Part shown: piece by piece, positions 30,100-62,416 of the stretch
Layout: each line of letters begins with the position of its first letter
Position numbering within the stretch: position 1 is the first letter of the stretch
NCBI GenBank assembly: GCA_021323655.1
Contig: JAJPKO010000065.1
Span: forward strand, 157,556-221,555
From: Acidobacteriaceae bacterium
GTDB taxonomy: Bacteria; Acidobacteriota; Terriglobia; Terriglobales; Acidobacteriaceae
Length of the DNA stretch: 64,000 nucleotides
Reading direction: 5' to 3'
Notes under the pieces: generated by a model
Seen by the model: the letters and a program-made list of their open reading frames with translations, nothing else
The model's database searches: none
What the model was told of the DNA's origin: nothing
Program-made: the position numbers and the translations under genes

Positions 30100-30130
30100 A
30101 TCTCCTCCGTTCCCCTCGGAACTGGGTATT

Positions 30131-30290
30131 TGTATGCTGAGGCCGGTCTCCTGACTCTGCGCGCCCTGCCTGCCGCCTTCCCGGATTTTCCAGTGGCTCG
30201 TGGCATGGCATCAGCTTGTGCTGCTTGCGCGCTTACAGTTGCGGGGCAGTGGCGGATTCCCACCGCCTTCCCGAACACCTCATGCATTGG
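30131..30290 (-). promoter_or_regulatory. Cobalamin riboswitch
   Basis: Read leftward, the leader contains conserved core elements of the B12 aptamer: CGGTGGGAATCCGCCACTG, then CCCCGCAACTGTAAGCG, then GAGCCACTGG..CGGGAAGGC, and finally AGTCAGGAGACCGGCC, closed by a bulged outer stem (TATGCTGAGG/CCTCATGCAT). It ends about 30 nt before the receptor start codon, so translational control is likely, in keeping with shut-off by adenosylcobalamin. The outer limits are approximate. Confidence 0.92.
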
Positions 30291-30385
30291 GTGGTGTACG
30301 CAACAAGGACTTCCCTGCGCGTTTCTCTTCCGTTCTGTACCGGAAATACGATTATTCGTGAGGAGGAAGGTCAAAGTCAAAACCC

Positions 30386-56105: not shown

Positions 56106-58727
56106 ATGCCCTCATCCACGCCTGAGCCACTGCGTTTTGCGCATCTGCCGTTGTTTTTCTCAGCCATCTTCTTTTCCTGCGGCATCCTTGTCTCGCGCTT
56201 TTTCTGGACGGCCCCCGGGCTGCTCTTCCTGTCTACGTTTCTTTATGCGGCCTTGTGCCTTTTCGCGGTCTGCAAAGCCCCGCGTATCTCTCTGCTCCCC
56301 GTGGCTGCCATGTTCTTCTGCCTCGGTGGGTTCTGCGCGGAAACCATCCCTTACCCCTCCCCACAGTCTGCGCTCGCTGTGTTCGCCAATGGAACGCCCA
56401 GAATCTTCGAAGGCCAGGTCACCCGTACAGGGGTAGTGCGGCAAATCCACTCCGTCCTTCCCTTCTCCAACAAAGCACGCGCCGAACAAAGCCAGCAGCT
56501 CCAGCTACGCATCACCGCGGTGGCCTCTGACGACGGCACAATGCAACCGCTCACCGGCGGCCTCTCTCTCAGCGTATACGCGCCAATGGAAGAGGCCTTT
56601 CCCTCCATCGCGTGTGGAGACACGCTGCGCACATCCGTCATTCTGCGTCTCCCCGATCATTACCTCGATCTAGGCGTCTGGGATGAGCGCGTCTATCTGC
56701 TGGACCAGGGGATCGGAGCCATCGGCAATGTAAAACTCGACGCAATCACCATCACCCGCAAAGCGCAGCGCGCTCCTTTTCCCTGCTGGCTGCATTCTCT
56801 GCAACAAAAGACAAGCTCCCGCCTCGTGGCCTTCACAGAAAATTCCCGCGACGGCTTTTTCCGCCTCAGCCGCGAAGACGCAACCATGCTCGCCGCTATG
56901 CTGACCGGAGACCGCAGCTATCTCTCACGCGGTGTGCGCGTGGGCTTCGAGCGCACCGGCTCCTTCCATCTCCTGGTGGTTTCAGGAATGCATCTTGCCA
57001 TCTTCGCCGGACTCGTATTCTGGCTGGCAAAAATGCTGCGTGCCTCCCGTGTGGCCGCCACACTACTGACCATTGCCGTCTCTCTCGCCTACGCGCTCTT
57101 CACCGGGTTCGGCCAGCCTGTACAGCGCTCGTTCTGGATGATCGCGCTGTATCTCACCGGAAGGCTGCTGTGGCGCGAGCGCAGTGCCCTGAACGCCATC
57201 GGCTTTGCCGCGCTCGGTTTGCTCATCGCAAATCCCCGCTCACTTTTTGACGCCGGCTTCCAGATGACCCTGCTGACGGTGCTGGCCACAGCGGGAGTGG
57301 CCCAGCCCATTGCGGAAAAAACATTCGCTCCGCATCTACGCGCACTCCGTAATTTATGGACGCACCAGATAGACCCATCCCTTCCGCCGCGCATCGCCCA
57401 GTTTCGCGTCACCATGCGGATCATCGCAGAACACGTGCGGCTCTTTGCCGGCCCCATGGCTGCGCGAATGCTCCCCTTCTGCACGAAAATCCTTCTGCGC
57501 TTTCTTGAGCTTCTTCTGGTTTCCGTCACCATTGAGCTGTTCATGCCCTTGCCCATGGCGATGTACTTCCATCGCATCACGGCTGCCGGAATCCCGGTCA
57601 ATCTCCTCATCGTTCCGCTGCTTGGCCTCTTATTGCCGGTTGCTATGCTCACTTTGCTCGCGGTCGTACTTCTTCCTGCCGTGGCTGTCATTCCCGCATC
57701 GGCAACCGCTGCCATCCTGCATATTGTCCTTCTTCCCGTGCGCGAATTCTCGCGTTTTCCCATCAGCGACCTGCGACTGCCTTCGCCTCCAGCACTCGCC
57801 GTTCTGGCCTGGATGTTCTGTATTGCATTCAGCATCTGGGTCGTCCGCCGGGATCGTCTGGCGAAGACCGCTGCTTTTCTTTCTCTGCTCGCAGGATCCG
57901 CCGCCATCATCGTCTGGCACAACACAGCAGGCCCGCAGCATCGCCTTGAAATTACCGCACTCGACGTGGGCCAGGGCGACTGCATTCTGGTAATTTCGCC
58001 CAACGGCAAATCGCTGCTCGTGGACGCAGGCGGAACCGCGGGCATGCACCCGGACTCAAAATTCGATATCGGCGAAGATGTCGTCTCCCAGGCATTATGG
58101 GCGCGTGGCATCAGGCATCTGGACGCGGTGGCGATCACTCACGCGCATGCTGACCACATCGGCGGGATGCCCGCAGTGCTCGAAAATTTCCGTCCCTCGA
58201 TGCTCTGGGTCGGCCACAATCCTGAGAGTACCGCGTATGATGCAATTCTCCGCGAAGCCGCAGCCATCGGAACCAACGTACACTCCTACGCCGCAGGAGA
58301 CACATTTTCATTCGGAGGAATGCAGGTCCGCGTCCTCTCACCCACCCCGGATTACACTCCGAAATCCTCGCCCAGCAACGACGACTCTCTGGTCCTCCGC
58401 ATGAGCTACGGCAACACCTCCGCCCTGCTTGAAGGTGACGCCGAGGCACCCAGCGAAGCACACATGCTCACGGAAGGCGGTCTGCGCTCAGATCTGCTGA
58501 AAGTCGGCCACCACGGCAGCAAAACATCTACCACTCCGGCTTTCTTACATGCCGTAGCACCCTCGTATGCGGTCATTTCTGTAGGGCGGTACAACTACTA
58601 CGGCCATCCCAAGCTTGAGACGCTCAAAAAGCTGGAAGACGCCCGCGCCCTCACCTACCGCACCGACCTTATTGGCGCGTCTACTTTTTATCTGGATGGA
58701 CAGCACATCAGCCCCGCCCCTCGCTAA
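56106..58727 (+). CDS. comEC: DNA internalization-related competence protein ComEC/Rec2
   Basis: An 873-residue inner-membrane channel for taking up single-stranded DNA. It has an N-terminal DUF4131-like part with an OB-type fold, the central competence domain with many helices (RTGSFHLLVVSGMHLAIFAGLVFWLAK), and a C-terminal metallo-beta-lactamase domain with LDVGQGDCILV, ITHAHADHIGGM, GHHGSKTSTTPAF and VSVGRYNYYGHP, thought to degrade the non-transported strand. The ATG at 56106 follows a GGGGCGGGG stretch; the frame is open upstream inside rlmD. It is convergent and overlaps the siroheme gene by 4 nt. Confidence 0.94.
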   Translation: MPSSTPEPLRFAHLPLFFSAIFFSCGILVSRFFWTAPGLLFLSTFLYAALCLFAVCKAPRISLLPVAAMFFCLGGFCAETIPYPSPQSALAVFANGTPRIFEGQVTRTGVVRQIHSVLPFSNKARAEQSQQLQLRITAVASDDGTMQPLTGGLSLSVYAPMEEAFPSIACGDTLRTSVILRLPDHYLDLGVWDERVYLLDQGIGAIGNVKLDAITITRKAQRAPFPCWLHSLQQKTSSRLVAFTENSRDGFFRLSREDATMLAAMLTGDRSYLSRGVRVGFERTGSFHLLVVSGMHLAIFAGLVFWLAKMLRASRVAATLLTIAVSLAYALFTGFGQPVQRSFWMIALYLTGRLLWRERSALNAIGFAALGLLIANPRSLFDAGFQMTLLTVLATAGVAQPIAEKTFAPHLRALRNLWTHQIDPSLPPRIAQFRVTMRIIAEHVRLFAGPMAARMLPFCTKILLRFLELLLVSVTIELFMPLPMAMYFHRITAAGIPVNLLIVPLLGLLLPVAMLTLLAVVLLPAVAVIPASATAAILHIVLLPVREFSRFPISDLRLPSPPALAVLAWMFCIAFSIWVVRRDRLAKTAAFLSLLAGSAAIIVWHNTAGPQHRLEITALDVGQGDCILVISPNGKSLLVDAGGTAGMHPDSKFDIGEDVVSQALWARGIRHLDAVAITHAHADHIGGMPAVLENFRPSMLWVGHNPESTAYDAILREAAAIGTNVHSYAAGDTFSFGGMQVRVLSPTPDYTPKSSPSNDDSLVLRMSYGNTSALLEGDAEAPSEAHMLTEGGLRSDLLKVGHHGSKTSTTPAFLHAVAPSYAVISVGRYNYYGHPKLETLKKLEDARALTYRTDLIGASTFYLDGQHISPAPR

Positions 58728-59353
58728 CCAGAAGACGATTCAGCGGCAGTCTTGCGGGCAAGCTGACGCGAAGGACACTCTTCCAGATCACAGACCTCGC
58801 GTTGCGCAAGAGTGTGCAGCAGCAGCTTTCGTTCTTCTCCCGCAGGCATCATTTCCAGGACTTCACGCCGAAGCGCCCCCAGCGAGGCAAGCCATGGGCC
58901 TAAGCCCTTTGGGAGCTGGCTGTCTATTTCGCGGCGCAATTGCTGGGCAAGCGCGGGGCTTTCTCCTGCCGTGGAAATTGCAATTTGCAGGTTGCCGCGG
59001 TCCACAATCGAAGGGAAATAGAAGTCACAGTTCGGCGGATCGTCTACCGAATTGCAAATGACATTGCGTTTTGCAGCTTCATCAAAGACAGCCGCGTTGA
59101 CTTCCAGCCGGTCCGTCGCCGCAACCACAAGAAACATCCCATCCAAATCAGCCGCCTCAAACTCCCGCGGATGCCAATGAATGCGGCCTTCTTCCGCAAG
59201 CGATACGACAGAAGCTTTCGCCTTCGGCGCAACCACCGTTACCTCAGCTTCTACCTTGAGCAGGCTCTGGATCTTTGATTCAGCCACCTCCCCTGCTCCG
59301 GCGACGAGACATCGCCGGCCTTTCATCTTAAGAAAGATAGGGAAAAGCGCCAT
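58724..59353 (-). CDS. Precorrin-2 dehydrogenase/sirohydrochlorin ferrochelatase (Met8/CysG N-terminal type)
   Basis: Makes siroheme from precorrin-2. The 209-residue protein has the NAD motif CLVAGAGEVAESKIQSLL and the conserved part NSVDDPPNCDFYFPSIVDRGNLQIAISTAGESPALAQQLRREI, as in CysG domain 1 and Met8. It lacks the uroporphyrinogen methyltransferase domain. It lies 21 bp after the sulfite/nitrite reductase gene, which needs siroheme, so both would be controlled by the leader upstream of that gene. The C-terminal 20 residues are an Arg/Ser-rich tail. Confidence 0.92.
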   Translation of the reverse strand: MALFPIFLKMKGRRCLVAGAGEVAESKIQSLLKVEAEVTVVAPKAKASVVSLAEEGRIHWHPREFEAADLDGMFLVVAATDRLEVNAAVFDEAAKRNVICNSVDDPPNCDFYFPSIVDRGNLQIAISTAGESPALAQQLRREIDSQLPKGLGPWLASLGALRREVLEMMPAGEERKLLLHTLAQREVCDLEECPSRQLARKTAAESSSG

Positions 59354-59374: not shown

Positions 59375-61042
59375 CTATGCCACTACTGCGGGAACAGCAG
59401 CGCCGGAGAGCCGGTCGCGTATCTCTTCCACAGAGTGCCGCGCAAAATACGTGCGCAGATTGTCATCCGGATTGCGCTCGGCAAGATACGCACGCAGAAG
59501 CCGTTCCAGCGCTGCCGGAACTTCCGTTGCCGGAACGCGATACCCAGTAGAACGCGCGATTCCTGACCCTCTGCCGACACCACCGCCGACATTAAATACA
59601 TAGGCGTCCATCATCTTGCCGTCGTGCTTTGTCTTCTTGCCTTCCAGACCGATATCGGCAATCCAGTGCTGGCCGCAGCCGTTGGGGCATCCGGTCACGT
59701 GCAGCCTCAGTTGTTCGGTAAATTCGGGCAGCCGCTCTTCCATCTCTTCCACCAGCCAGCGCAGAAAGCCCTTCGTCTCCGTAATGGCCAACTTGCAGAA
59801 CTCCGTGCCAGTGCACGCAATTCCTCCGCGCCAGAATGCGGAGCCTTCCACGCGCAGGTCGATCTTGCCCAACTCATCCGCCAGTTTCAGGGCTTTCTCC
59901 GCGGGCACATTCACAATGACAAAGTTCTGCATGATTGTGGTGCGTACTTCGCCCGATCCGTAACGGTCTGCCAGATCAGCAATCGCAGCAAGCTGGTCGC
60001 CACTCAGCCGCCCACGCAGCACGGACGCGCCTACATACACCAACCCCGGCTGCTTCTGTGCATGAATGCCAACATGGTCGCGCAAAATGTCATCCGGAAC
60101 CTGCTCCTCCACACCCGGATCCAGCTTGTATCCCAGGCGCGATTCAAGTTCACTTAGGAAACTCTTCGCGGTCCATCCTTCGCGCAGAAAGAGATATTTC
60201 AACCGCGCACGGTCGCGGCTTTCACGCAGCACCTGCTGGTCGCGGAAGATTTCCGTCACGCGACGCACCACATCCAGCGCCTGTTCGGGGCGGATAAAAG
60301 CATCCAGTTTGGTTGCAAGGTGCGGCTCATTGGAAAGCCCTCCGCCCACGCGCAGAACATATCCGACCTCGTCGCCGCGGCGGATCGCCGTCAATGCCAC
60401 ATCATTCAGTTCCGGATAATTGCACCAGACCGCGCATCCTGAAACAGAAATCTTGAACTTGCGCGGAAGATTCCGGAACTCCGGATTCGCAATCAGCTTG
60501 TGCGCTATTTCAAGCGCCAGCGAAGACGCATCAATCAGCTCATCGTGCTCAATCCCGGCTAGCGGGCACCCCGTCACGTTGCGGACCACATCGCCGCATG
60601 CTCCCTTGGACGAGAGGCCCACGGCCGCCAGTGTATCCACAATCTCCGGCAGCGATTCGATTGTCAGCCAGTGCAGCTGAATGTTCTGGCGCACCGTAAT
60701 ATCGGCAAGGTTGCGCGCGTGCTTGCGCGCTATGTCCGCAATTACCCGAACCTGGTCAGAGCGCAAAATCCCATTCGGAACACCAATGCGCATCATGAAG
60801 TACTCAGTGGCTAGACCCTCCCCGCCTTTGCCGCCTACCGCGCCAATCCCATCTCCCTGGGTGTAGATCCCCCACCATTTAAAGTAAGCAGAAGCCCACT
60901 CAGGCGCGACGCTCGAACGCCCCTGACGGGCGAATTCGCGCACTTCGTTAAACGCCTCCCAAGGGTTCTTCTCGCGCTTCAGGCGCTCCATTTTCTGGGC
61001 TTTGGTTTCCTTTACTTGAGGTGTCTGGGGTGTTTCGCTCAT
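59375..61042 (-). CDS. Siroheme-[4Fe-4S] sulfite (or nitrite) reductase, ferredoxin-type
   Basis: A 555-residue one-electron-donor type siroheme reductase with two duplicated halves. Siroheme/iron-sulfur ligands are the cysteines of TGTEFCKLA and TGCPNGCGQHW. The N-terminal half has NVTGCPLAGIEHDELID and VSGCAVWCNYPELNDVAL. Family names include NirA and Sir; ferredoxin-sulfite reductase is favoured here because of the Cys-codon leader upstream and the siroheme gene downstream. A good ribosome site (AGGA) precedes the ATG. No nitrate assimilation genes are in the window, which also favours sulfite, but nitrite cannot be ruled out. Confidence 0.88.
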   Translation of the reverse strand: MSETPQTPQVKETKAQKMERLKREKNPWEAFNEVREFARQGRSSVAPEWASAYFKWWGIYTQGDGIGAVGGKGGEGLATEYFMMRIGVPNGILRSDQVRVIADIARKHARNLADITVRQNIQLHWLTIESLPEIVDTLAAVGLSSKGACGDVVRNVTGCPLAGIEHDELIDASSLALEIAHKLIANPEFRNLPRKFKISVSGCAVWCNYPELNDVALTAIRRGDEVGYVLRVGGGLSNEPHLATKLDAFIRPEQALDVVRRVTEIFRDQQVLRESRDRARLKYLFLREGWTAKSFLSELESRLGYKLDPGVEEQVPDDILRDHVGIHAQKQPGLVYVGASVLRGRLSGDQLAAIADLADRYGSGEVRTTIMQNFVIVNVPAEKALKLADELGKIDLRVEGSAFWRGGIACTGTEFCKLAITETKGFLRWLVEEMEERLPEFTEQLRLHVTGCPNGCGQHWIADIGLEGKKTKHDGKMMDAYVFNVGGGVGRGSGIARSTGYRVPATEVPAALERLLRAYLAERNPDDNLRTYFARHSVEEIRDRLSGAAVPAVVA

Positions 61043-61062
61043 TGTTTTCCTGTAGATGGAAA

Positions 61063-61094
61063 TAAAAAACCCGCTGCAGGTTGGCTGCGCGGGT
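61063..61094 (-). terminator. Attenuator terminator in the leader of the sulfite reductase gene
   Basis: Leftward: ACCCGCGCAG-CCAAC-CTGC-A-GCGGGT, a 10-bp stem with a one-base bulge, then a T run. It starts 8 nt after the leader peptide stop and ends about 20 nt before the reductase start. It lies in the 5' leader, not after a gene, so regulation is expected. The alternative partner of its 5' strand is at 61138-61149. Confidence 0.8.
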
Positions 61095-61149
61095 CTTGTG
61101 ACTTACCTGATCTCTGAAAATGCTGGAGTCATTCGTTCACAAGTCCGGC
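61089..61149 (-). promoter_or_regulatory. Antiterminator pairing (61138-61149 with 61089-61100)
   Basis: GCCGGACTTGTG (61149-61138) pairs with CACAAGACCCGC (61100-61089) through a 12-position helix with two mismatches. Its formation would block the terminator because it uses the ACCCGC strand. The first segment covers the codons of leader residues 9-12, after two of the three Cys codons. Confidence 0.65.
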
Positions 61150-61174
61150 GGAAGCACAACAACATGCACAACAT
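61103..61174 (-). CDS. Cysteine-containing leader peptide, 23 residues
   Basis: ATG at 61174-61172 opens 23 codons beginning MLCMLLCFRRTCERM and ending with TAA. Three of the first 12 residues are cysteine. It is followed at once by an intrinsic terminator and then the sulfite reductase gene. Ribosome stalling at Cys codons would favour the antiterminator, as in classical amino-acid attenuation. The ribosome site is weak, and a second in-frame ATG at residue 4 is possible. A similar role of Cys leaders is known in actinobacteria for sulfur genes; here it is inferred. Confidence 0.65.
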   Translation of the reverse strand: MLCMLLCFRRTCERMTPAFSEIR

Positions 61175-61210
61175 ATCGCCGGAATCGAGTGAGAACGAGA
61201 CATTTTCTAT

Positions 61211-61239
61211 AGCCTACCGGGTTGAAGAGGCTAGGTCAA
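61211..61239 (-). promoter_or_regulatory. Possible promoter of the leader/reductase transcript
   Basis: Leftward, TTGACC (61239-61234), a 17-bp spacer and TAGGCT (61216-61211). The -10 fits only partly; another possibility is TATAGA at 61211-61206. A transcript would start about 30 nt before the leader ATG. Confidence 0.4.
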
Positions 61240-61282
61240 GATAAAGCATCTACACCAGAGCACCCCACTCCTCTGTGTAAAA

Positions 61283-62416
61283 ATGCGATACTGGAATGTG
61301 GGCAATTCCTTCAACAATACGGTGGCCGTGGCCATGTCTGGCGGAGTGGACTCCTCTACCGTCGCGGCCATGCTCAAGGACGAAGGCTACGAGCTGGTCG
61401 GCCTCACGCTCCAGCTCTGGAACCAGCGCCGCCTTGCTGGTCACGAAGGTATGCCCGAACAGGTACAGGGCCGCTGCTGCTCCATTGACGACGTATACGA
61501 CGCGCGCCGCGTCGCCGAGGCACTCGGCATTCCCTACTACCTCATCAACGAGCAGGACCGCTTCGAGCGCGATGTCGTGCGCCCCTTCGTCTCTGAGTAC
61601 CTCGCCGGACGCACGCCCATCCCCTGCTCGCTCTGCAACAATCACCTCAAGTTTGATCAGTTGCTCGTCCGTGCCCGCCAGATCGGCGCCGACCGCATCG
61701 CCACCGGCCACTATGCCCGGAACGAGTACGACCCCCTCCGCAACCGCTGGATTCTGAAGCGCCCTGCCGACCTGAGCAAGGACCAGACATATTTCCTCTT
61801 CGGTCTCACCCAGGAGCAGCTCTCGCGCACCCTTTTCCCACTCGGCGGCTACACTAAGCCCGAGGTCCGCGAGCTCGCGCGCGAGCACGGCCTGGCCATT
61901 GCCGTAAAGCCCGACTCGCAGGAAATCTGCTTCATCCCCGGCGGCGACTACAAAAAGTTTATTGACGCCTATCTCGATGAGCAGGGCGTGGCCATGCCAG
62001 ACACCTCCGGCGAGCTTGTCTCCACCTCAGGCGAAGTCATCGGCCACCATCAGGGCATCCACAACTTCACCGTAGGACAGCGCAAGGGCCTGGGCATCTC
62101 ATCTCCTAATCCGCTCTACGTCATCCAGATAGACAGCGTGTCCCACAAGGTCATCGTCGGCAATGAATCCGAAACTACCACCCGGACATTGCGCGCCCGC
62201 AACATCAACTGGATTTCCATCTCCTCCCTCGACGCGCCCATGCGTGTGCAGGTAAAAATCCGTCACCGCCATGAACCAGCCTGGGCCACCATCGAAATGT
62301 CCGGCCCGGACGAGGTCCTTGCCACCTTCGACGATCCACAGCGCGCCGTAACACCCGGTCAGGCAGCCGTCTTCTATCACAAGGACGAGGTCGTCGGCGG
62401 AGGCTGGATCGTCTGA
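61283..62416 (+). CDS. mnmA: tRNA-specific 2-thiouridylase MnmA
   Basis: Adds the 2-thio group at U34 of tRNA-Lys, -Glu and -Gln. The 377-residue protein has the PP-loop AMSGGVDSSTVAAML, the first catalytic cysteine in IPCSLCNNHLKFD, the second in SQEICFIPGGDYKKF, and the C-terminal beta domains. The ATG at 61283 gives a slightly longer N-terminus than usual (RYWNVGNSFNNTVAVAMSGG) and lacks an obvious ribosome site. It is divergent from the reductase operon, about 45 bp from its promoter; both deal with sulfur. Confidence 0.95.
   Translation: MRYWNVGNSFNNTVAVAMSGGVDSSTVAAMLKDEGYELVGLTLQLWNQRRLAGHEGMPEQVQGRCCSIDDVYDARRVAEALGIPYYLINEQDRFERDVVRPFVSEYLAGRTPIPCSLCNNHLKFDQLLVRARQIGADRIATGHYARNEYDPLRNRWILKRPADLSKDQTYFLFGLTQEQLSRTLFPLGGYTKPEVRELAREHGLAIAVKPDSQEICFIPGGDYKKFIDAYLDEQGVAMPDTSGELVSTSGEVIGHHQGIHNFTVGQRKGLGISSPNPLYVIQIDSVSHKVIVGNESETTTRTLRARNINWISISSLDAPMRVQVKIRHRHEPAWATIEMSGPDEVLATFDDPQRAVTPGQAAVFYHKDEVVGGGWIV

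What the first reader, a model, noticed from the sequence alone, without database searches (positions are those of the whole stretch)
61063..61239. Candidate cysteine-responsive attenuator in front of a sulfite reductase/siroheme operon
Seen: a 23-codon ORF with Cys at positions 3, 7 and 12; 8 nt after its stop an intrinsic terminator (10-bp stem with one bulge, then T run); about 20 nt further the reductase ATG with a good ribosome site. A second pairing, GCCGGACTTGTG with CACAAGACCCGC, would take the 5' strand of the terminator and lies over codons 9-12. This is the full plan of classical attenuation: stalling at Cys codons 3 or 7 would leave the antiterminator free and let the operon be read when Cys-tRNA is scarce. 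Known: Cys leader peptides control sulfur genes in actinobacteria. Inferred: the same logic here, in a putative acidobacterium, with a terminator-based rather than purely translational mechanism.
Basis: partly seen in the sequence, partly recalled or inferred. Interest (0 to 1): 0.85.

Follow-up and report, generated by a model that had tools for sequence, protein, structure and literature searches.

The report
Cysteine-sensing attenuator before sulfite reductase
In front of a predicted sulfite-reductase gene of a bacterium, likely an acidobacterium, lies a tiny open reading frame packed with cysteine codons and a predicted transcription stop signal that together would let the cell switch on sulfur assimilation when cysteine runs short; the same layout recurs in most of the related genomes examined and before two other operons, one of them for a likely peroxide-defence enzyme.

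Summary
The conserved leader ORF starts 29 nt further upstream: MSRSHSIPAICCACCCASAGLVNE (minus strand, 61203-61129; Cys at codons 11, 12, 14, 15, 16). A predicted terminator and then the reductase follow; among solved structures the reductase is nearest to M. tuberculosis NirA. Of 103 non-redundant reductase upstream regions, 85 have such a poly-Cys leader (0 of 10 labelled Rokubacteria, Methylomirabilota or Actinomycetota). A terminator hairpin follows in 78 of the 85 by score (controls 16-21%), in the other 7 by eye. Segments can form protector 1:2, antiterminator 2:3 and terminator 3:4; own partners pair better than partners from other species, and two control pairings do not. TGT makes up 66% of leader Cys codons, 9% in the reductases. 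The predicted promoter usually lies 4-11 nt before the start codon, so the leader is likely leaderless. Two pattern scans of the own genome found three copies: this one, one before cysD-cysN-cysH, one before a peroxiredoxin. Best reading: trp-type attenuation by charged tRNA-Cys. Nothing was tested experimentally. Cys attenuators are already proposed in mycobacteria and Rhodobacterales, so this is a new variant of a known kind.

The parts
61234..61239 (-). predicted -35 hexamer TTGACC
   Evidence: 17-nt spacer to the -10; score 8.3, just under the 95th percentile of shuffles (8.54); the stricter consensus scan listed no promoter here
61211..61216 (-). predicted -10 hexamer TAGGCT, 7 nt before the leader ATG (predicted leaderless start)
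   Evidence: the first in-frame start is 4-11 nt after the best -10 in 74 of 85 leaders, in 48 of the 51 with a promoter score over the shuffle 95th percentile, and in 6 of 76 shuffled regions over that score
61129..61203 (-). poly-Cys leader ORF MSRSHSIPAICCACCCASAGLVNE*
   Evidence: same architecture in 85 of 103 ortholog upstream regions
61156..61173 (-). Cys codons 11, 12, 14, 15, 16 (TGT TGT GCA TGT TGT TGT)
   Evidence: sequence; TGT in 300 of 454 leader Cys codons and in 76 of 881 Cys codons of the reductase genes
61177..61182 (-). segment 1, CCGGCG (protector, pairs with segment 2)
   Evidence: fold of the naked leader; swap test 1:2 in 31 of 39 clusters, p 3.5e-7; weak column signal
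61138..61150 (-). segment 2, CGCCGGACTTGTG (antiterminator 5' strand, inside the ORF after the Cys codons)
   Evidence: fold with a ribosome edge at the Cys codons; 2:3 in 34 of 39 clusters, p 1.4e-8
61085..61100 (-). segment 3, CACAAGACCCGCGCAG (antiterminator 3' strand; from 61094 the terminator 5' arm)
61064..61079 (-). segment 4, predicted terminator 3' arm CTGCAGCGGGT and T run
   Evidence: hairpin -18.1 kcal/mol; 3:4 own pairing stronger in 39 of 39 clusters
61048..61051 (-). ribosome-binding site AGGA of the reductase
   Evidence: sequence
59375..61042 (-). ferredoxin-type nitrite/sulfite reductase; predicted assimilatory sulfite reductase
   Evidence: NF007125 381 bits, below its cut-off of 594; best solved relative 1zj8, M. 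tuberculosis NirA
58724..59353 (-). siroheme synthase N-terminal domain (CysG-N), predicted second gene of the operon
   Evidence: TIGR01470, 177 bits over its cut-off of 62.3

Best explanation
This is most likely a trp-type transcription attenuator, predicted to sense charged tRNA-Cys through a 24-codon leader ORF with five Cys codons and to control a likely sulfite reductase/siroheme operon. Inferred mechanism: transcription starts at or within a few nt of the leader ATG and a ribosome begins at once. With enough Cys-tRNA it runs to the stop codon and covers segment 2; segments 3 and 4 then form the terminator and the operon stays off. When Cys-tRNA is scarce it stalls on codons 11-16, keeping segment 1 from pairing; segment 2 catches segment 3 before segment 4 is made, and polymerase reads on into the reductase. 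With no ribosome, segment 1 holds segment 2 and the terminator is the default. The choice would be kinetic, because at equilibrium the terminator usually wins. Two pattern scans of the own genome found three such leaders, the others before cysD-cysN-cysH and before a peroxiredoxin. Shown: the anatomy, its conservation, and species-matched complementarity of the alternative stems. Not shown: translation, start site, termination, or any response to cysteine.
For: Conservation: 86 of 103 non-redundant reductase upstream regions have a short ORF with at least 3 Cys in 9 codons (shuffles 11.3%, genomic control 6.6% of 4242), 59 at least 4 (1.0%, 0.7%), 36 at least 5 (0.02%, 0.09%). One, L095, is a CxxC zinc-ribbon-like false hit (my judgement), leaving 85. 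Hairpin of -8 kcal/mol or better plus T run: 78 of these 85 by score against 89 of 425 shuffles and 68 of 425 genomic segments; the other 7 by eye. Alternative stems: own pairing beats cross-species swaps for 2:3 in 34 of 39 clusters (p 1.4e-8), 1:2 in 31 of 39 (p 3.5e-7), 3:4 in 39 of 39; control pairings 2:4 (21 of 39) and 1:3 (18 of 39) do not. Folding before the 3' arm is made (77 leaders): terminator 5' arm paired upstream 0.62 with a ribosome on the Cys codons, 0.21 with it at the stop, 0.49 in shuffles (real against shuffle p 2.7e-9). In the window the antiterminator fold is -23.3 to -11.9 kcal/mol for stalls at codons 11-16; with a ribosome at the stop only a -2.7 kcal/mol fold remains. 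Codons: TGT 300 of 454 in leaders, 76 of 881 in the reductases. Start: first in-frame start 4-11 nt after the best -10 in 74 of 85. Same layout before cysD (8 of 23 evaluated loci with ORF and terminator) and peroxiredoxin (13 of 30). In genome G035 one leader precedes reductase-cysG(N)-cysG(C)-cysD-cysN-cysH.
Against: At equilibrium the full-length leader keeps the terminator in nearly every state (mean 0.82 stalled, 0.93 at the stop; only 8 of 77 switch), so control has to be kinetic. In the nascent-RNA test the naked leader is not well protected on average (0.51, against 0.62 stalled). Column-by-column covariation of the antiterminator is weak in one subtype (13 of 500 shuffles reach the paired fraction, 71 of 500 the score) and absent in the window's own subtype, whose terminator also shows none. 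For the window alone the stalled/stop contrast is modest (0.57 vs 0.36; 13% of shuffles as good at the middle Cys). The window's promoter score is just below the 95th percentile of shuffles, and a stricter consensus scan found no promoter. 8 orthologues outside the Rokubacteria/Methylomirabilota/Actinomycetota-labelled loci do not pass the leader test; two of these have a 2-Cys leader and terminator by eye, the other six show no leader. No such leader was seen close before cysK (0 of 15 loci), cysE (1 of 8, at the minimum of 3 Cys) or cysS (2 of 6, but ending at least 238 nt away).
Confidence: 0.88

Rival explanations
1. Translational attenuation as proposed for mycobacteria: the poly-Cys leader ORF controls ribosome delivery or access to the reductase start, and the hairpin is incidental.
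For: Poly-Cys leaderless short ORFs are reported to attenuate translation of downstream genes in M. smegmatis (Canestrari 2020, not read; seen only as described in PMC9031893); the leader here is also predicted leaderless.
Against: 78 of 85 leaders have a scored terminator-like hairpin with a T run (controls 16-21%), the other 7 one by eye, and the antiterminator targets the terminator 5' arm. In the window the reductase ribosome site (61051-61048) lies outside the terminator hairpin.
Confidence: 0.07
2. The Cys-rich peptide itself is the sensor: it binds a metal or is oxidised in the exit tunnel, and the ribosome stalls on peptide chemistry rather than on empty tRNA-Cys.
For: A peroxiredoxin gene carries the same leader; the authors of PMC4633059 also speculated on redox for mycobacterial Cys-rich leaders (passages).
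Against: Cys number and spacing vary freely (CCACCC, CRCC, CCCC, CMCMC), and TGT, rare in the reductase genes, is favoured in the leaders (66% against 9%), which points to decoding rather than peptide chemistry.
Confidence: 0.04
3. A chance short ORF beside a constitutive terminator or processing hairpin.
For: For the window alone several measures are unremarkable (promoter score; shuffle fraction 0.13).
Against: Conservation in 85 of 103 orthologues, species-matched stems and two further operons.
Confidence: 0.01

Closest known systems
trp-type ribosome-mediated transcription attenuators (trp, his, leu leaders; recalled)
   Same: Leader ORF with codons of the pathway's product, and protector 1:2, antiterminator 2:3, terminator 3:4 logic. 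In a permissive Rfam scan of 61000-61260 the top row is the Trp leader RF00513 (19.8 bits, gathering 41, E 0.089), far below threshold.
   Different: Cysteine instead of Trp, His or Leu; leader predicted leaderless or nearly so; targets are sulfate assimilation and a peroxiredoxin.
Poly-Cys leader ORFs of mycobacterial cys operons (PMC1262725, passages; PMC4633059, passages; Canestrari 2020, described in PMC9031893)
   Same: Poly-Cys leader upstream of sulfur genes; leaderless start (there by the authors' reports, here predicted).
   Different: No conserved terminator hairpins were found there; control is described as translational. Here a terminator-like hairpin follows every one of the 85 leaders (7 of them by eye only) and the alternative stems are species-matched.
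uORFC-8-2 motif before cysS in Rhodobacterales (PMC8632094, passage)
   Same: Leader ORF with tandem Cys codons and a 3' U run; ribosome-mediated attenuation proposed.
   Different: Different phylum, different gene (cysS), two Cys codons, mostly UGC. Here no leader was seen close before cysS in the 6 genomes looked at.

Membership tests
trp-type ribosome-mediated transcription attenuator | short leader ORF rich in codons of the amino acid made by the operon | tested here: met
   5 Cys in 24 codons; 85 of 103 orthologues. That the ORF is translated is not shown
trp-type ribosome-mediated transcription attenuator | intrinsic terminator between leader ORF and first gene | tested here: met
   predicted in 78 of 85 by score, controls 16-21%, and in 7 by eye
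trp-type ribosome-mediated transcription attenuator | alternative antiterminator between ORF end and terminator 5' arm, and a protector stem | tested here: met
   species-swap test with negative controls; column covariation is weak or absent
trp-type ribosome-mediated transcription attenuator | readthrough depends on charged tRNA and ribosome position | not testable with these tools
   only folding with assumed ribosome edges
mycobacterial leaderless poly-Cys attenuator | leaderless ORF (start codon at the transcription start) | tested here: inconclusive
   predicted: first in-frame start 4-11 nt after the best -10 in 74 of 85 leaders; 6 of 76 high-scoring shuffles; no start-site data
mycobacterial leaderless poly-Cys attenuator | no intrinsic terminator; translational control | tested here: not met
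   terminator-like hairpins in 78 of 85 leaders by score and 7 by eye
uORFC-8-2 (Rhodobacterales cysS) | upstream of cysS with the conserved motif | tested here: not met
   wrong gene; no leader close to cysS in 6 genomes: L249 and L251 pass 3 Cys in 9 codons but end at least 238 nt before the gene. Whether the motif is in Rfam was not checked
SAM riboswitch or T-box | Rfam covariance-model match | tested here: not met
   no match in the region at gathering threshold or in the permissive scan up to E 1

The most novel reading that the evidence does not exclude
Much of one order of Acidobacteriota runs a cysteine regulon without a protein regulator: leaderless poly-Cys mini-genes coupled to four-segment attenuators read the charging of tRNA-Cys and jointly control sulfate activation and reduction, sulfite reductase, and a peroxiredoxin, so that loss of usable cysteine, including by oxidation, raises both sulfur supply and peroxide defence. 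It would supply the intrinsic-terminator counterpart that was not found for the mycobacterial poly-Cys leaders.
Probability: 0.5. Interest if true: 0.75.

Novelty: new variant of a known kind. Interest (0 to 1): 0.62.

Why it matters
Cysteine attenuation has been proposed in mycobacteria, where terminators were not found, and in Rhodobacterales for cysS. A 2010 survey says that almost none of the attenuators predicted in Acidobacteria have an associated function (PMC2965389, passage). Here a complete, comparatively supported cysteine attenuator recurs across many acidobacterial genomes before three kinds of operon, predicts the physiological substrate of a NirA-type reductase (sulfite rather than nitrite), and links sulfur supply to a peroxiredoxin. 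It is directly testable in relatives with named strains, such as Terracidiphilus gabretensis or Granulicella rosea.

Tried and rejected
First pass of upstream regions in contig orientation for all 30 loci: wrong for the 17 minus-strand loci, repeated correctly. Equilibrium switch model: 8 of 77 switch, replaced by the nascent-RNA test. Column covariation: terminator significant in subtype A3, not in A2; antiterminator weak in A3, none in A2; protector in A2 weak. Other sulfur genes in six genomes: cysK 0 of 15 loci; cysE 1 of 8 at the minimum of 3 Cys (8 of the 12 loci given were looked at); cysS 2 of 6 but far upstream (6 of 12 looked at, the six over the family cut-off). One of four cysH-like loci (L233) has a 4-Cys ORF that I did not follow further. 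Own-genome scan at matches to TGYTGYNNNTGYTGY (79 hits) and TGYNNNTGYTGYTGY (88 hits): one search lists 75 ORFs of at most 60 codons with at least 4 Cys in 9 (including those from 30 loci of genome G001); 21 pass a lenient hairpin cut-off; I judged three (L115, L127, L274) to have a compact GC-rich terminator and the other 18 to be long or interrupted folds. Other Cys spacings were not scanned. Literature: eight searches of an open-licence library; no row listed showed a cysteine attenuator in Acidobacteriota or before a peroxiredoxin (some searches had more hits than rows). Canestrari 2020 is not held.

Full report
What is there. On the minus strand, 61203 to 61129, lies a 24-codon ORF, MSRSHSIPAICCACCCASAGLVNE, with Cys codons 11, 12, 14, 15 and 16, all TGT. 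A promoter-like TTGACC-17-TAGGCT ends 7 nt before its ATG. After the stop, at 61094-61064, comes a predicted intrinsic terminator (-18.1 kcal/mol), then a ribosome site and the reductase (61042-59375), followed by a siroheme-synthase domain gene. The reductase's best solved relative is M. tuberculosis NirA, 1zj8; that this enzyme reduces sulfite is recalled, not from a call. The divergent gene at 61283 is mnmA.

Correction of the first observation. In 12 aligned orthologues its Cys codons are not kept, whereas the frame given above keeps its Cys run; in the nearest genome it also keeps its exact length.

Conservation. I collected 110 reductase loci: 30 from unnamed relatives (48 of 61 genomes had a match, the best 30 matches became loci) and 80 from named genome contigs (which kept the best 80). 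Seven were dropped (four with short upstream sequence, three near-duplicates), leaving 103. 86 have a short ORF with at least 3 Cys in 9 codons, 59 at least 4, 36 at least 5; dinucleotide shuffles give 11.3%, 1.0% and 0.02%, and 4242 other segments of the same loci give 6.6%, 0.7% and 0.09%. One hit (L095) looks like a zinc-ribbon CxxC ORF, so 85 stand. The ten loci labelled Rokubacteria, Methylomirabilota or Actinomycetota have none. Of the other eight misses, L067 and L069 show a two-Cys leader with terminator, and the remaining six show no leader. Leaders occur in named strains such as Terracidiphilus gabretensis S55, Granulicella rosea DSM 18704 and Edaphobacter modestus DSM 18101, and in the second family of the order.

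Terminator and alternative stems. 78 of 85 leaders have a hairpin of -8 kcal/mol or better followed by a T run, against 89 of 425 dinucleotide shuffles and 68 of 425 genomic segments of the same length; the other seven show one by eye. I cut 78 leaders into segments 1 (before the Cys run), 2 (after it, to just past the stop), 3 (up to and including the terminator 5' arm) and 4. In 39 similarity clusters, own 2:3 pairing is stronger than cross-species swaps in 34 (p 1.4e-8), 1:2 in 31 (p 3.5e-7) and 3:4 in 39 (p 1.8e-12); controls 2:4 (21 of 39, p 0.72) and 1:3 (18 of 39, p 0.79) are not. Column counts are less kind: the terminator covaries in subtype A3 (21 sequences, 0 of 500 shuffles), the antiterminator only weakly, and the window's subtype A2 (12 sequences) shows no covariation for antiterminator or terminator and a weak signal for the protector.

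Ribosome logic. At equilibrium the complete leader mostly keeps the terminator, so I folded the nascent RNA before the 3' arm is made (77 leaders, assumed ribosome edge 13 nt past the A-site codon start). The terminator 5' arm is paired upstream with mean probability 0.62 when a ribosome sits on the Cys codons, 0.21 when it sits at the stop, 0.51 with no ribosome and 0.49 in shuffles. In the window, stalls at codons 11, 12, 14, 15 and 16 give folds of -23.3, -22.3, -19.3, -14.9 and -11.9 kcal/mol; at the stop codon only -2.7 remains; with no ribosome, segment 1 holds segment 2. For the window alone the probabilities (0.57 against 0.36) are only suggestive.

Codons and start. TGT is 300 of 454 Cys codons in leaders but 76 of 881 in the reductase genes, as expected if slow decoding matters. 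Of 85 leaders examined, 51 have a promoter score above the 95th percentile of shuffles; in 48 of these 51, and in 74 of all 85, the first in-frame start is 4-11 nt after the best -10, against 6 of 76 shuffled regions with such a score. A leaderless or nearly leaderless start is therefore predicted; no start-site data were available.

Regulon. Scanning the own genome with two Cys patterns (79 and 88 hits) and inspecting the ORFs found, I judged three to have a compact terminator: this one, one before cysD-cysN-cysH and one before a peroxiredoxin. Among relatives the peroxiredoxin has the leader in 15 of the best 30 loci (13 with terminator) and cysD in 12 of 23 evaluated loci (8 with terminator; 26 of the 30 loci were given to the script, 3 could not be placed). 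At the 3-Cys threshold some of these hits will be chance; the 8 and 13 with terminator are the firm ones. In G035 a single leader precedes reductase, both siroheme-synthase parts, cysD, cysN and cysH. No such leader was seen close before cysK, cysE and cysS in the loci looked at. A second siroheme reductase in the own genome (L141) fits the NirA family model over its cut-off and sits beside a CysJ-like flavoprotein; it is the better candidate for nitrite (inference).

Known work. Poly-Cys leaders without terminators were described in Mycobacterium, Propionibacterium and Bifidobacterium (PMC1262725, passages). Leaderless poly-Cys ORFs in mycobacteria were proposed as cysteine attenuators (PMC4633059, passages) and reported to act on translation (PMC9031893, passage). 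A Cys leader with a U run precedes cysS in Rhodobacterales (PMC8632094, passage). No Rfam family matches the region at threshold; the permissive scan lists the Trp leader at 19.8 bits, gathering 41. I therefore call it a new variant of a known kind.

Noticed in passing
L115:1468-1640 (G000:C3, about 151296-151468): A peroxiredoxin gene preceded by leader MERLAPTCMCLCCCCCCCCTVRVCS (8 Cys in a row) and a terminator-like hairpin; a similar ORF in 15 of the best 30 loci of relatives, 13 with terminator. Suggests that cysteine attenuation reaches peroxide defence.
   Followed up: partly
L355 (G000:C17:13500-23000): cysD-cysN-cysH operon with its own poly-Cys leader MDCRCCCSTSASRQGCGRCK and terminator-like hairpin, about 197 kb from the window's leader on the same contig.
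   Followed up: partly
L141:2034-5665 (G000:C34): Second siroheme reductase (NirA family NF007126, over cut-off) next to a CysJ-like flavoprotein; the two Cys pattern scans have no hit near it, and no other search for a leader was made there.
   Followed up: no
window 30124-30294, minus strand: Cobalamin riboswitch (RF00174, 83.4 bits); the gene it would control was not examined.
   Followed up: no
upstream of the reductase in L012, L015, L084: Very long Cys runs in leaders (6 to 8 Cys in 9 codons), more than attenuators of other amino acids usually have (recalled); why so many is unexplained.
   Followed up: no
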